Below the pieces are notes generated by a model. The model did not search any database. It had not been told where the DNA came from and worked only from the letters and a program-made list of their open reading frames with translations. Below are positions 44,954-47,868 of a stretch of 64,000 nucleotides of DNA, in pieces. Origin of the DNA: Aquitalea magnusonii (lineage in GTDB: Bacteria; Pseudomonadota; Gammaproteobacteria; Burkholderiales; Chromobacteriaceae); NCBI RefSeq assembly GCF_003202035.1, contig NZ_QJKC01000011.1, positions 97,352 to 161,351 on the forward strand, written 5' to 3'. Position 1 is the first letter of the stretch. Each line of letters opens with the position of its first letter. The translations under genes and the position numbers were made by a program.

Positions 44954-46744
44954 TCAACGTACTTTCACGCTTACCAGCTCGCCGCCGTCCTCGCCGATGA
45001 CATGGGTGGAGCAGGCCAGGCAGGGGTCGAAGCTGTGCAGGGTGCGCAGGATTTCCAGCGGCTGATCCGGCACCGCCATCCTGGTGCCCATCAGCGAGGC
45101 TTCGTAAGCGCCGATCTGGCCCTTGGCGTCGCGCGGGCCGGCATTCCAGGTGGTGGGTACCACGCACTGGTAGCTGTCGATGCGGGTGTCGGCAATCTTC
45201 AGCCAGTGGCCCAGCGCGCCGCGCGGCGCTTCGGTAAAGCCCACACCCTTGGCCGCGGCCGGCCAGCTGGCCGGGTCCCACTTCTCCACATTGGCAGTCG
45301 CCGTGTCGCCGTTCTTGATATTGCTGATGAGACGGTCGAAGAAGTAGCGCATCTTGTTGGCAGCCCAGGACGACTCCAGCGCGCGCGCGGCAGTACGGCC
45401 CAGGGTGGAGAACAAGGCTTCCTTGGGTGCACCCAGCGCGTGCAGCAGCTTGTCCACCGGTTCCTTGAATTCCGGCTTGTTCTGGTGGTAGCCAATCAGG
45501 TAGCGTGCCAGCGGGCCCACTTCCATGGCATGGCCCTTCCAGCGCGGCGACTTGATCCAGGAGTACTTGGCGGATTCGTCCAGCTGCTCGATGCGGGTCT
45601 TGGTGCCCTTGTGCTTGGCACCCAGCTCGAATTTGGGCGCGGTGATGCCATCGAAGGGGTGCAGGCCCTTGCTGTCGTCGCCATAGCTGTACCAGCTGTG
45701 GGTGACGAATTCCTGGATTTCATCCGGGGCGTACAGGTCGATCGGGTGGATTTCGTTGAACTTGCCGTTGATGATGGCACCACGCGGCAGCAGCAGGCTG
45801 CTTTCGCTGTAGTCATTGGCATGGTCGGGGAAGTCGCCGTAGGACATCACGCTCTGGCTGGACAGGCCGCCACCGATGGAGGCCCAGTCCTTGTAGAAAC
45901 CGCCGATGGCGATGACGTCCGGAATGTATACCTGCTCGCAGAAGGTGATGGTGCGGTCGATGATCTGCGACACCAGGTTCAGCCGCTCCATATTGATGGC
46001 ACCGACTGCGCCCACATCGTCGATATTGATGGCGCAGGGCATGCCGCCCACCAGCCAGTTGGGGTGGGGGTTCTTGCCGCCAAAAATGGTATGGATCTTG
46101 ACGATTTCCTTCTGGAAATCCAGCGCTTCCAGATAGTGGGCTACCGCCATCAGGTTTGCTTCCGGCGGCAGTTTCATCGCCGGGTGACCCCAGTAGCCAT
46201 TGCGGAAGGGGCCCAGCTGGCCGGATTCGACAAAGCGCTTCAGTCGCGATTGCAGGTCACGGAAATAACCGGGGCTGGACATGGGCCAGTCGGAAATGCT
46301 CTGGGCCAGCTCGCTGGTTTTTTTCGGGTCGGCCTTGAGGGCGGACACCACGTCCACCCAGTCCAGCGCATGCAGATGGTAGAAGTGCACCAGGTGGTCG
46401 TGCACATACAGCGCCGCCTGCATGATGTTGCGGATCAGGTTGGCGTTTTCGGGAATCTTGATCTTCAGCGCGTCTTCCACCGCACGCACCGAGGTCAGCG
46501 CATGGGTGCCGGTGCACACGCCGCAGATGCGCTCGACAAAGGCCCAGGCGTCACGCGGGTCACGGCCCTTGAGGATGACTTCCAGGCCGCGCCACATGGT
46601 GCCGGTGGACACGGCATTGGTGATGATGTTGTTGCTGTCGATGTTCACTTCGCAGCGCAGATGGCCTTCGATACGGGTGACCGGGTCCACCACCACGCGG
46701 CGGCCGCTATTGTCCAGGGTAAAACCTTGGGTCTGGTAGGACAT
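44954..46744 (-). CDS. hupL: [NiFe]-hydrogenase large subunit HupL
   Basis: 596 aa. Holds the NiFe(CN)2CO active site of the H2-uptake enzyme. Nickel ligands: RICGVCTGTH (Cys74, Cys77, with His81) and DPCLACSTH near the C-terminus (Cys575, Cys578, His581). A 15-residue extension follows His581 and is the substrate of HupD. The start shares TGATG with the hupS stop. Confidence 0.97.
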   Translation of the reverse strand: MSYQTQGFTLDNSGRRVVVDPVTRIEGHLRCEVNIDSNNIITNAVSTGTMWRGLEVILKGRDPRDAWAFVERICGVCTGTHALTSVRAVEDALKIKIPENANLIRNIMQAALYVHDHLVHFYHLHALDWVDVVSALKADPKKTSELAQSISDWPMSSPGYFRDLQSRLKRFVESGQLGPFRNGYWGHPAMKLPPEANLMAVAHYLEALDFQKEIVKIHTIFGGKNPHPNWLVGGMPCAINIDDVGAVGAINMERLNLVSQIIDRTITFCEQVYIPDVIAIGGFYKDWASIGGGLSSQSVMSYGDFPDHANDYSESSLLLPRGAIINGKFNEIHPIDLYAPDEIQEFVTHSWYSYGDDSKGLHPFDGITAPKFELGAKHKGTKTRIEQLDESAKYSWIKSPRWKGHAMEVGPLARYLIGYHQNKPEFKEPVDKLLHALGAPKEALFSTLGRTAARALESSWAANKMRYFFDRLISNIKNGDTATANVEKWDPASWPAAAKGVGFTEAPRGALGHWLKIADTRIDSYQCVVPTTWNAGPRDAKGQIGAYEASLMGTRMAVPDQPLEILRTLHSFDPCLACSTHVIGEDGGELVSVKVR

Positions 46745-47868
46745 CAGACTTTCTCCTCGTTCTTGTCTTTATTCTGCGCGGGGGCGGCGGCGTCCAGCGG
46801 CTGCAGGTCCTGCTTTTTCAGCATGGTGCTCTTGATGGCGCTGACCGCGGCATGGGCGGCAATGGCGGCGCCAGCGGTGCCGGCCACGGTAAAGCCGATC
46901 TTGTCGGCATTGGCTTCCACGCCGAATTGCGGAATGGAGGTGACGCGGTCGTAGAAGGAGCCCTTGTCCCAGAAGCCTTCTTCCGAACAGCCGATGCAGC
47001 CGTGACCGGACTGGATGGGGAAGGACACGCCGTCGTTCCAGCGCACGGTGGAGCAGGCGTTATAGGTGGTGGGGCCTTTGCAGCCCATCTTGTACAGGCA
47101 GTAGCCCTTGCGCGCGCCATCGTCGTCCCAGTTCTCGACAAACTGACCAGCATCAAAGTGCGGGCGGCGATAGCATTTATCATGGATGCGCTGGCCGTAG
47201 AACATCTTGGGCCGGCCCTGGCGGTCCAGTTCCGGAATCTTGTCGAAGGTCACCATATAGGTAATCACGGCAGCCATGACTTCCGGAATCGGCGGACAGC
47301 CCGGCACCTTGATCACCGGCTTGTCCAGAATCACCTGGTGTACCGGCGTGGCGCGGGTGGGGTTGGGTTTGGCGGCCTGCACGCAGCCCCAGCTGGCACA
47401 GGAACCCCAGGCGATCAGTGCCTTGGCGTCGGCCGATACGCGCTTGAGTTTTTCCACGAAGGGCTCGCCACCGGGGAAGCAGTACATGCCGTCCTCGTTC
47501 AGCGGCGGGTTGCCTTCCACGGCCACGATGTAATTGCCTTTGTGGTTCTTGATCAGGTCGTCGAGGATGGCTTCGGCCTGATGCCCGGCGGCAGCCATGA
47601 TGGTGTCGTCGTAATCCAGCGAGATCAGCGACAGGATGGCGTCCTTGGCCAGCGGGTGGGCCGAGCGGATGAAGGACTCGGTACAGCAGGTGCACTCGAG
47701 GCCGTGCAGCCAGATGACCGGCACGCGCGGCTTGGTTTCCAGTGCGTAGGCAATGCGGGGGACAAAGGCTGAGCCCAGGCCCAGCGAGGTGGCGGTCAGG
47801 CTGCAGAACTTAAGAAAGCTGCGCCGAGTCACGCCCTGGCGACGCATGGCTTGATAGAAAGTCTCCAT
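46744..47868 (-). CDS. hupS: [NiFe]-hydrogenase small subunit HupS, oxygen-tolerant type
   Basis: 374 aa. Tat signal (TRRSFLKFCS), a C-terminal membrane helix and three Fe-S clusters. The proximal-cluster region reads ECTCCTES (Cys59, Cys61, Cys62) and GSCASWGCVQAAKP (Cys157, Cys162). The extra cysteines at 61 and 162 replace the glycines of oxygen-sensitive enzymes and indicate a six-cysteine [4Fe-3S] cluster, the marker of group 1d oxygen-tolerant hydrogenases. VEGNPPLNEDGMYC is also typical of this group. First gene of hupSLC. Confidence 0.97.
   Translation of the reverse strand: METFYQAMRRQGVTRRSFLKFCSLTATSLGLGSAFVPRIAYALETKPRVPVIWLHGLECTCCTESFIRSAHPLAKDAILSLISLDYDDTIMAAAGHQAEAILDDLIKNHKGNYIVAVEGNPPLNEDGMYCFPGGEPFVEKLKRVSADAKALIAWGSCASWGCVQAAKPNPTRATPVHQVILDKPVIKVPGCPPIPEVMAAVITYMVTFDKIPELDRQGRPKMFYGQRIHDKCYRRPHFDAGQFVENWDDDGARKGYCLYKMGCKGPTTYNACSTVRWNDGVSFPIQSGHGCIGCSEEGFWDKGSFYDRVTSIPQFGVEANADKIGFTVAGTAGAAIAAHAAVSAIKSTMLKKQDLQPLDAAAPAQNKDKNEEKV

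What the first reader, a model, noticed from the sequence alone, without database searches (positions are those of the whole stretch)
46744..47868. Uptake hydrogenase small subunit carries both extra cysteines of the oxygen-tolerant [4Fe-3S] cluster
HupS has Cys61 in ECTCC and Cys162 in SWGCVQAAK, where oxygen-sensitive enzymes have glycine. In known group 1d enzymes these two residues create the six-cysteine cluster that lets the enzyme work in air. The sensor subunit HupU in the same locus has the ordinary pattern, so the contrast is clear within one locus.
Basis: partly seen in the sequence, partly recalled or inferred. Interest (0 to 1): 0.7.

Follow-up and report, generated by a model that had tools for sequence, protein, structure and literature searches.

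The report
Air-tolerant hydrogenase operon with toxinless antitoxin
An Aquitalea-like bacterium's hydrogen-burning enzyme carries both extra cysteines that its air-tolerant relatives use, so it likely works in air, and its operon also holds an antitoxin-like gene with no toxin beside it, which is predicted to regulate hydrogen use.

Summary
Window 46744-47868 on the MINUS strand encodes a HoxK/HyaA-type small subunit. Its Cys61 and Cys162 fall on HoxK Cys19 and Cys120. Of the rows covering both sites, 99 of 99 HoxK-like ones are Cys/Cys and 39 of 39 Hyd-2-type or sensor ones Gly/Gly. HupL has the Glu73/His229 pair. Oxygen tolerance is likely, untested. HupUV is glycine-type but has the HoxBC sensor's Ile/Phe, so glycine there does not mean air-sensitive.

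The new part lies 2.8 kb past hupS, between hupC and hupD: a HigA-type antitoxin gene without HigB. Among 399 genomes of the order, its 22 best relatives (121 bits or more; the next is 101) all lie beside hydrogenase genes; 21 follow hupC, in 21 of 46 genomes with this hydrogenase. HigB adjoins 0 of 22, against 11 of 11 ordinary HigA controls. C. necator H16 keeps a decayed copy between hoxZ and hoxM. My searches showed no report of it. I read it as a hydrogenase-dedicated DNA-binding regulator: inferred, with no operator found.

The parts
46744..47868 (-). hupS: HoxK/HyaA-type small subunit, 374 aa, Tat signal; Cys61 = HoxK Cys19, Cys162 = HoxK Cys120
44954..46744 (-). hupL: large subunit, 596 aa; Glu71 = Hyd-1 Glu73, His227 = Hyd-1 His229; C-terminal end like HoxG and HyaB
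44052..44822 (-). hupC: cytochrome b subunit (PF01292)
43999..44044 (-). perfect 14-bp inverted repeat with 18-nt loop after hupC, terminator- or attenuator-like; the same repeat was not found in the relatives scanned
43616..43903 (-). toxinless HigA-type HTH gene, 95 aa from its likely ATG at 43903 (the mechanical ORF runs from GTG 43981)
42906..43448 (-). short ORF without family match; relatives beside the cargo slot in G001, G002, G003, G004, G007
37155..42488 (.). strain-specific cargo inside the hup cluster: Lrp/AsnC-type regulator, histone-deacetylase-like hydrolase, ornithine-cyclodeaminase-like protein, periplasmic binding protein, small HTH
35915..36523 (-). hupD: maturation protease (PF01750)
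35592..35915 (-). hupF: HypC-like chaperone (PF01455)
35152..35592 (-). hupG: HyaE/HoxO-type chaperone (PF07449)
34292..35161 (-). hupH: HyaF/HoxQ-type (PF04809)
34068..34271 (-). hupI: rubredoxin, HoxR-type (PF00301)
33592..34224 (-). hupJ: HybE/HoxT-type chaperone (PF11939), ORF as listed
32585..33739 (-). hupK/HoxV-like by position and similarity to loci of relatives; no Pfam or NCBIfam match
26486..32601 (-). hypA 32251-32601, hypB 31174-32178, hypF 28876-31170, hypC 28638-28865, hypD 27523-28641, hypE 26486-27526
24950..26407 (-). hupR: response regulator with sigma-54 activator domain
22529..24966 (-). hupU 23965-24966 (Gly/Gly, no Tat signal in the alignment) and hupV 22529-23968 (Ile62, Phe110): sensor hydrogenase, 59% and 51% identical to HoxB and HoxC
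21192..22553 (-). hupT: PAS histidine kinase
47984..47999 (-). sigma-54-like element TGGCACGGATATTGAA, 131 bases before the hupS start (consensus match only, 11 of 12 fixed positions)

Best explanation
This is the small subunit of a HoxK/HyaA-type membrane-bound uptake [NiFe]-hydrogenase whose two extra cysteines lie at HoxK positions 19 and 120, where they would hold a six-cysteine [4Fe-3S] cluster, so the enzyme is predicted to keep oxidising H2 in air. Inferred mechanism, as in C. necator and E. coli Hyd-1: when O2 reaches the Ni-Fe site, the proximal cluster gives up two electrons in quick succession (recalled) and O2 is reduced to water; HupL His227 and Glu71 tune the cluster, and electrons from H2 pass through HupC to the quinones. 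Transcription of hupS is likely driven by HupR and sigma-54 under control of the HupUV-HupT H2 sensor (inferred from homology). A second, less certain layer: the operon's HigA-type gene has kept its DNA-binding domain but has no toxin beside it, and probably acts as a hydrogenase-dedicated regulator (about 0.55; no target shown).
For: Cys61/Cys162 align without gaps to HoxK Cys19/Cys120. The Cys/Cys versus Gly/Gly split is complete in the 138 of 140 rows that cover the sites. HupS is 78% identical to HoxK and 71% to HyaA, but 40% to HybO. A Tat signal scores above the cut-off. HupL has Glu71 and His227 at the Hyd-1 Glu73/His229 sites, where HybC, the partner of HybO, has Gln58 and His214; PMC3940037 (abstract and passages) ties Glu73 and His229 to air tolerance. 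Rubredoxin, HyaE-, HyaF-, HybE-type and Hyp genes are present. PMC10583674 (passages) shows that C19G/C120G turns the cluster into a [4Fe-4S] cubane. PMC4747160 (passages) reports that C19G makes a tolerant enzyme highly O2-sensitive. Of nine same-genus genomes, 8 have hupS, one of them frameshifted; the ninth is 61% complete. HigA part.
Against: No activity was measured. Homologues with both cysteines vary at other positions; only four of six purple-bacterial Hup enzymes have both Glu73 and His229 (PMC6981441, passages). The H16 gene that I take for HypX (beside hypE) finds only 23% and 28% matches over a part of it in this genome, so assembly in full air may be limited. In this strain 7.5 kb with opposite-strand genes separates hupC from hupD and a 14-bp hairpin follows hupC, so the accessory genes may be poorly transcribed from the hupS promoter. 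For the HigA part, no palindrome distinguishes carriers from non-carriers upstream of hupS, and the gene is absent from 25 of 46 loci.
Confidence: 0.87

Rival explanations
1. The cysteines are there, but the enzyme works only at low oxygen: the cluster forms, while other residues, the lack of HypX or the split operon restrict it to micro-oxic use.
For: No convincing HypX in the genome. Operon split by opposite-strand cargo. Hup enzymes with both cysteines differ at other cluster-side residues (PMC6981441, passages).
Against: Glu71/His227 and the chaperone set are present. E. coli K-12 makes Hyd-1 from a shorter hya operon, and that enzyme is air-tolerant (PMC4747160, passages).
Confidence: 0.3
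2. The HigA-type gene is a passenger: a leftover of an old toxin-antitoxin insertion that stays by chance between hupC and hupD.
For: It is missing from 25 of 46 loci with this hydrogenase (in one of the 25, G155, the contig ends inside hupC, but the whole-genome search gave only an 83-bit hit elsewhere). It has decayed in C. necator H16. Eight changes are needed on the HupS tree. No operator was found.
Against: The 22 best relatives adjoin hydrogenase genes, the 21 behind hupC spread over 11 family codes, and none has HigB beside it. dN/dS is 0.06-0.32 in 8 of the 9 pairs with a usable dS, 0.50 in the ninth. One copy (G117) sits instead in front of a Hyd-2-type small subunit. A passenger should neither stay intact nor follow hydrogenases.
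Confidence: 0.25
3. The HigA-type protein still neutralises a toxin encoded elsewhere, or guards the hydrogenase genes as an addiction module.
For: It exceeds the NCBIfam cut-off for HigA antitoxins (93.5 against 47.7 bits).
Against: PF05015 was not found in 16 of the 22 genomes, the window's included, and lies on other contigs in the other 6. Its clade is separate from 8 ordinary HigA with 99% SH-aLRT support. Toxins of other families were not searched for.
Confidence: 0.1

Closest known systems
Cupriavidus necator H16 membrane-bound hydrogenase HoxKGZ (pHG1)
   Same: 78% identical small subunit over the whole alignment, Cys19/Cys120, Glu72/His229 in HoxG, same gene order S-L-C-D-F-G-H-I-J-K-hypABFCDE-R-U-V-T
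   Different: H16 has an extra maturation gene between hypE and hoxA, which I take for hypX; its copy of the HigA-type gene is decayed (37 bits, frame lost after model position 64); no cargo between hoxZ and hoxM
E. coli hydrogenase-1 (HyaAB)
   Same: 71% identical small subunit, six proximal cysteines, Glu73/His229
   Different: short hyaABCDEF operon; no sensor, hyp, rubredoxin or HigA-type gene in the 7.5 kb fetched
C. necator regulatory hydrogenase HoxBC
   Same: HupU/HupV are 59%/51% identical, Gly/Gly, Ile62/Phe110
   Different: a sensor, not the uptake enzyme of the finding
HigA antitoxins (TIGR02607) and solved HigA-like structures
   Same: same HTH domain; 75.5 bits to 7csv and 64.8 bits to 2eby (YbaQ)
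   Different: no HigB neighbour in 22 of 22; fixed place beside hydrogenase genes; G-x-SRRR where the 8 compared ordinary HigA read PPRR, SPRR or SARR

Membership tests
HoxK/HyaA-type (group 1d) oxygen-tolerant uptake hydrogenase | Cys at HoxK positions 19 and 120 besides the four ordinary proximal ligands | tested here: met
HoxK/HyaA-type (group 1d) oxygen-tolerant uptake hydrogenase | Tat signal on the small subunit | tested here: met
   RRSFLK motif; TIGR01409 23.9 against cut-off 16.7
HoxK/HyaA-type (group 1d) oxygen-tolerant uptake hydrogenase | large subunit with Glu73 and His229 (Hyd-1 numbering) | tested here: met
   Glu71 and His227 of HupL; role from PMC3940037
HoxK/HyaA-type (group 1d) oxygen-tolerant uptake hydrogenase | cytochrome b subunit and HyaE/HyaF/rubredoxin-type maturation genes | tested here: met
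HoxK/HyaA-type (group 1d) oxygen-tolerant uptake hydrogenase | closer to HoxK/HyaA than to Hyd-2 type | tested here: met
   78%/71% to HoxK/HyaA against 40% to HybO; in the tree HybO served as outgroup, so that tree does not test it. HydDB was not run
HoxK/HyaA-type (group 1d) oxygen-tolerant uptake hydrogenase | H2 oxidation in air; [4Fe-3S] cluster seen by spectroscopy or crystal | not testable with these tools
   bench work needed
Regulatory (H2-sensing) hydrogenase, for HupUV | no Tat signal, ordinary proximal ligands, Ile62/Phe110 gas-channel residues, HupT/HupR partners | tested here: met
HigA antitoxin (higBA addiction module), for window 43616-43903 | HigA-type HTH domain above the curated cut-off | tested here: met
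   TIGR02607 93.5 against 47.7 bits
HigA antitoxin (higBA addiction module), for window 43616-43903 | HigB toxin gene next door | tested here: not met
   PF05015 beside 0 of 22 of this clade, beside 11 of 11 ordinary HigA controls. Not filed as an addiction module
HigA antitoxin (higBA addiction module), for window 43616-43903 | binds a palindrome at a promoter | tested here: inconclusive
   no dyad enriched upstream of hupS in carriers against non-carriers; binding not testable here

The most novel reading that the evidence does not exclude
Oxygen-tolerant hydrogenase operons of this bacterial order (Burkholderiales in GTDB, name recalled) carry an undescribed, toxin-free HigA-derived transcription factor, fixed between hupC and hupD, that was recruited to control hydrogenase expression and has since been lost in many lineages, including the model organism C. 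necator H16, where only its wreck remains in the hoxZ-hoxM gap.
Probability: 0.55. Interest if true: 0.62.

Novelty: new variant of a known kind. Interest (0 to 1): 0.4.

Why it matters
The enzyme itself adds one more predicted air-tolerant hydrogenase, in Aquitalea. The HigA-type gene is another matter: hydrogenase operons of this type have been studied in C. necator for decades (recalled), and the model strain happens to be one in which the gene has decayed. If it is a regulator, a layer of control has been invisible in the model, it can be tested by one deletion, and it would be a clear case of an antitoxin recruited to a metabolic operon.

Tried and rejected
Rejected: that the cysteines are misaligned; that they are a chance feature of one gene; that the HigA-type gene replaces the H2 sensor (HupU-like protein at E <= 1e-60 in 13 of 21 carriers and 15 of 25 non-carriers, so no association); that the carriers share an operator upstream of hupS (exact dyads present in 6 or more of 20 carriers: one, P 0.22; dyads with mismatches in 14 carriers and 20 non-carriers: 333 and 123 of 500 label shuffles reach the observed value); that a conserved hairpin after hupC is the operator (the repeats differ in sequence and occur with and without the gene). 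No sigma-54 pattern was found in up to 800 bases before hupD in the 11 stretches that reach hupD (compact gaps are shorter than 800 bases), so how hupD and the rest are transcribed past the cargo is open. The sigma-70 and terminator scan of the cargo is at chance level. One query (in L129) was misplaced and hit hupD; it says nothing.

HigA relatives in 369 genomes of the class (E <= 1e-30) and 299 of the phylum (E <= 1e-27) give, apart from the window, 3 and 8 weaker hits (98-109 bits, with a profile other than that). The three class hits have HigB beside them and no hup gene in their flanks; the eight phylum hits were not checked. These samples do not show absence outside the order: one Methylococcaceae MAG has the gene. 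Only 11 candidates at most per genome were scored, 14, 18, 4, so weaker copies may be missed.

Literature: searches found no paper; others (15 of 27 listed; 15 of 66; 5 of 5; 10 of 11) list none whose title or abstract start links a HigA-type gene to a hydrogenase operon. The unlisted ones were not seen, some 'higa' hits are probably author names, and subscription journals are not held. PMC4465626 was checked in passages only; they do not describe it.

Papers: PMC10583674, PMC3940037, PMC4747160, PMC6981441, PMC6802093, PMC4465626 were seen as passages; the rest as search listings. Statements marked recalled rest on no call.
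Full report
OBSERVATION. Window 46744-47868 encodes on the minus strand a 374-residue protein. Its best PDB relatives are HoxK of the Cupriavidus necator membrane-bound hydrogenase (617 bits, query 43-352 on HoxK 1-310 with no gap) and E. coli Hyd-1 (577 bits); past the Hyd-1, Hyd-5-like and one further membrane-bound entry the scores drop to 306 bits and less. Query Cys61 and Cys162 are HoxK Cys19 and Cys120. In an alignment with reference proteins read from annotated records (HoxK and HoxB from pHG1; HyaA and HybO from K-12), the two sites are Cys/Cys in HupS, HoxK, HyaA and Gly/Gly in HupU, HoxB, HybO. Over all loci then fetched, 140 rows matched: 99 Cys/Cys, 39 Gly/Gly, 2 that do not cover the sites. 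The rows contain duplicates and the window's own copies, and the 80 named loci were the best of 577, so the figure shows a clean split rather than a frequency.

PLACE AND ORGANISM. Named records with 99% identical HupS are Aquitalea palustris, A. aquatica and Aquitalea sp.. The genome shows two small subunits by PF14720, HupS and HupU. Of nine same-genus genomes, eight have HupS (one with a frameshift) and the ninth is 61% complete. Over the 61 genomes, 18 have a match of any kind.

THE REST OF THE ENZYME. HupL has Glu71 and His227 where Hyd-1 has Glu73 and His229; HybC has Gln58 at the first site and His at the second. PMC3940037 (abstract, passages) reports that E73A and H229A lose H2 oxidation in air in Salmonella Hyd-5. 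PMC10583674 (passages) reports that C19G/C120G in HoxK gives an ordinary cubane cluster, and PMC4747160 (passages) that C19G makes a tolerant enzyme highly O2-sensitive. HupC, HupD, HupF, HupG (HyaE-type), HupH, rubredoxin HupI, HybE-type HupJ, HypA, HypB, HypF, HypC, HypD, HypE, HupR (sigma-54 activator) and HupT (PAS kinase) are recognised; HupK is placed by position. HupV has Ile62 and Phe110 like HoxC, where the three uptake enzymes compared have Val and Leu; these narrow the gas channel of sensor hydrogenases (recalled). The Gly/Gly of HupU thus marks a different enzyme class, not a sensitive one. The H16 protein that I take for HypX finds only 23-28% matches to a part of it in this genome; C. 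necator has two routes to the CO ligand, one through HypX (PMC6802093, passages, citing others). Aerobic assembly here is thus an open point.

VERDICT ON THE FINDING. Correct and well known in kind: a new member of the HoxK/HyaA type. Air tolerance is likely but not shown.

WHAT LIES BESIDE IT. Between hupC and hupD the window holds a small HTH gene (43616-43903 from its likely ATG). It exceeds the NCBIfam cut-off for HigA antitoxins and matches Pfam HTH_3. Relatives sit after hupC in Aquitalea, Vogesella, Crenobacter, Zoogloea sp. LCSB751, two Proteobacteria MAGs, a Gallionellaceae MAG and a Methylococcaceae MAG. A profile of 13 such proteins was run over 399 genomes of the order (207 have some hit at 1e-12, since ordinary HigA are common). 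The 22 best hits score 121.7-174.4 bits; the next scores 101.4. Four of the 22 (G000, G005, G009, G031) were in the profile by construction. HupS was searched in the same genomes: 46 have a HoxK-type copy (62% identity or more). I fetched 40 of these 46 loci and G117 and had the other six already. One search finds the HTH gene right after hupC in 21 of 46; hupD follows it in 18 and is not within the stretch in 3 (G236, G421, G031). Among the 25 without it, one contig (G155) ends inside hupC. The 22nd carrier, G117, has no HoxK-type copy; there the gene lies 358 bases in front of a Hyd-2-type small subunit on the same strand. The 22 therefore all adjoin hydrogenase genes, the 21 in 11 family codes.

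NO TOXIN. HigB (PF05015) was sought in 33 genomes: 22 carriers and 11 genomes with ordinary HigA hits (8 next-ranked hits, 3 hits). HigB lies 0-89 bases from the HigA match in 11 of 11 controls and beside none of the 22; 16 of the 22 genomes show no PF05015 at all. In the 33 flanking loci examined (22 + 11), hydrogenase genes appear in 22 of 22 and 0 of 11. The 22 form one side of a branch against 8 ordinary HigA with 99% SH-aLRT (quick tree of 90 columns).

IS IT KEPT? Of 11 pairs compared, 9 have a usable dS; dN/dS is 0.06-0.32 in eight and 0.50 in one; the pairs are not independent, and the gene evolves faster than hupS. Over 15 carriers less than 97% alike in HupS, HTH identity correlates with HupS (r 0.44, P 0.0004) and HupC identity (r 0.49, P 0.0002); HupS with HupC gives 0.85. 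On the HupS tree, presence needs 8 changes, the H16 remnant counted as present, so loss, or gain, has been frequent. In C. necator H16 the 401-base gap between the cytochrome gene and the protease gene holds a copy that matches model positions 21-64 with 37 bits and then leaves the frame. The gene table shown for that record lists nothing there, but it omits pseudogenes. The clade is thus a real, selected, hydrogenase-linked branch of HigA. What it does is not shown. I propose a regulator of the operon. Presence of the HupU sensor is unrelated (13 of 21 against 15 of 25), and no dyad marks its carriers upstream of hupS. A profile search of the large protein collection gave 5485 relatives among the 8000 candidates scored; where a source names one of the 120 listed, it is nearly always HigA antidote or antitoxin.

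CARGO SLOT. In this strain hupC and hupD are 7.5 kb apart. Compact relatives with the HTH gene have 0.5-0.64 kb (G005, G009, G025), and G033, without it, 13 bases. Between shared flanks, Aquitalea genomes carry different genes: amino-acid-related genes here; a DUF4062 protein in G001 and an ORF of the same length and first 70 letters in G007; OloA and OloB (PADLOC, 288 and 531 bits) in G003; an endonuclease/phosphatase-family protein in G002; ORFs that look like two-partner secretion in G004 and G006 (by eye). A hydrogenase operon is thus a variable insertion site in this genus. Whether the split genes are still well expressed is unknown.

SCORES. Enzyme alone: about 0.1. With the HigA-type gene: 0.4.

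Noticed in passing
window 43616-43903 (-): Toxinless HigA-type HTH gene between hupC and hupD; a hydrogenase-linked clade, beside hydrogenase genes in 22 of 22 of its best relatives.
   Followed up: yes
window 37155-42488: Variable cargo slot inside the hup cluster of Aquitalea: different genes in most genomes compared, including the OloAB defence pair in G003 (L132:12677-16383) and a DUF4062 protein in G001.
   Followed up: partly
L115 (pHG1) 3893-4201: Decayed HigA-type copy in the hoxZ-hoxM gap of C. necator H16; not in the gene table shown, which omits pseudogenes.
   Followed up: partly
L205 4204-4596 (G117): The HigA-type gene in front of a Hyd-2-type operon instead of a HoxK-type one.
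   Followed up: partly
window 43999-44044: Perfect 14-bp inverted repeat right after hupC; T-rich hairpins follow hupC in several other loci, with and without the HTH gene.
   Followed up: partly
window 48209-50710 (+): CBS-PAS-GGDEF-EAL protein divergent from hupS, found there in the Aquitalea loci that reach so far (split in G003): a possible c-di-GMP link.
   Followed up: no
window 42906-43448 (-): ORF without any Pfam or NCBIfam match, with relatives beside the cargo slot in five other Aquitalea genomes.
   Followed up: no
L132/L098 (G003): hupS of one Aquitalea genome lies in two overlapping frames; frameshift or assembly error, left as it is.
   Followed up: no
whole genome G000: No convincing HypX although the hydrogenase is of the air-tolerant type.
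   Followed up: partly
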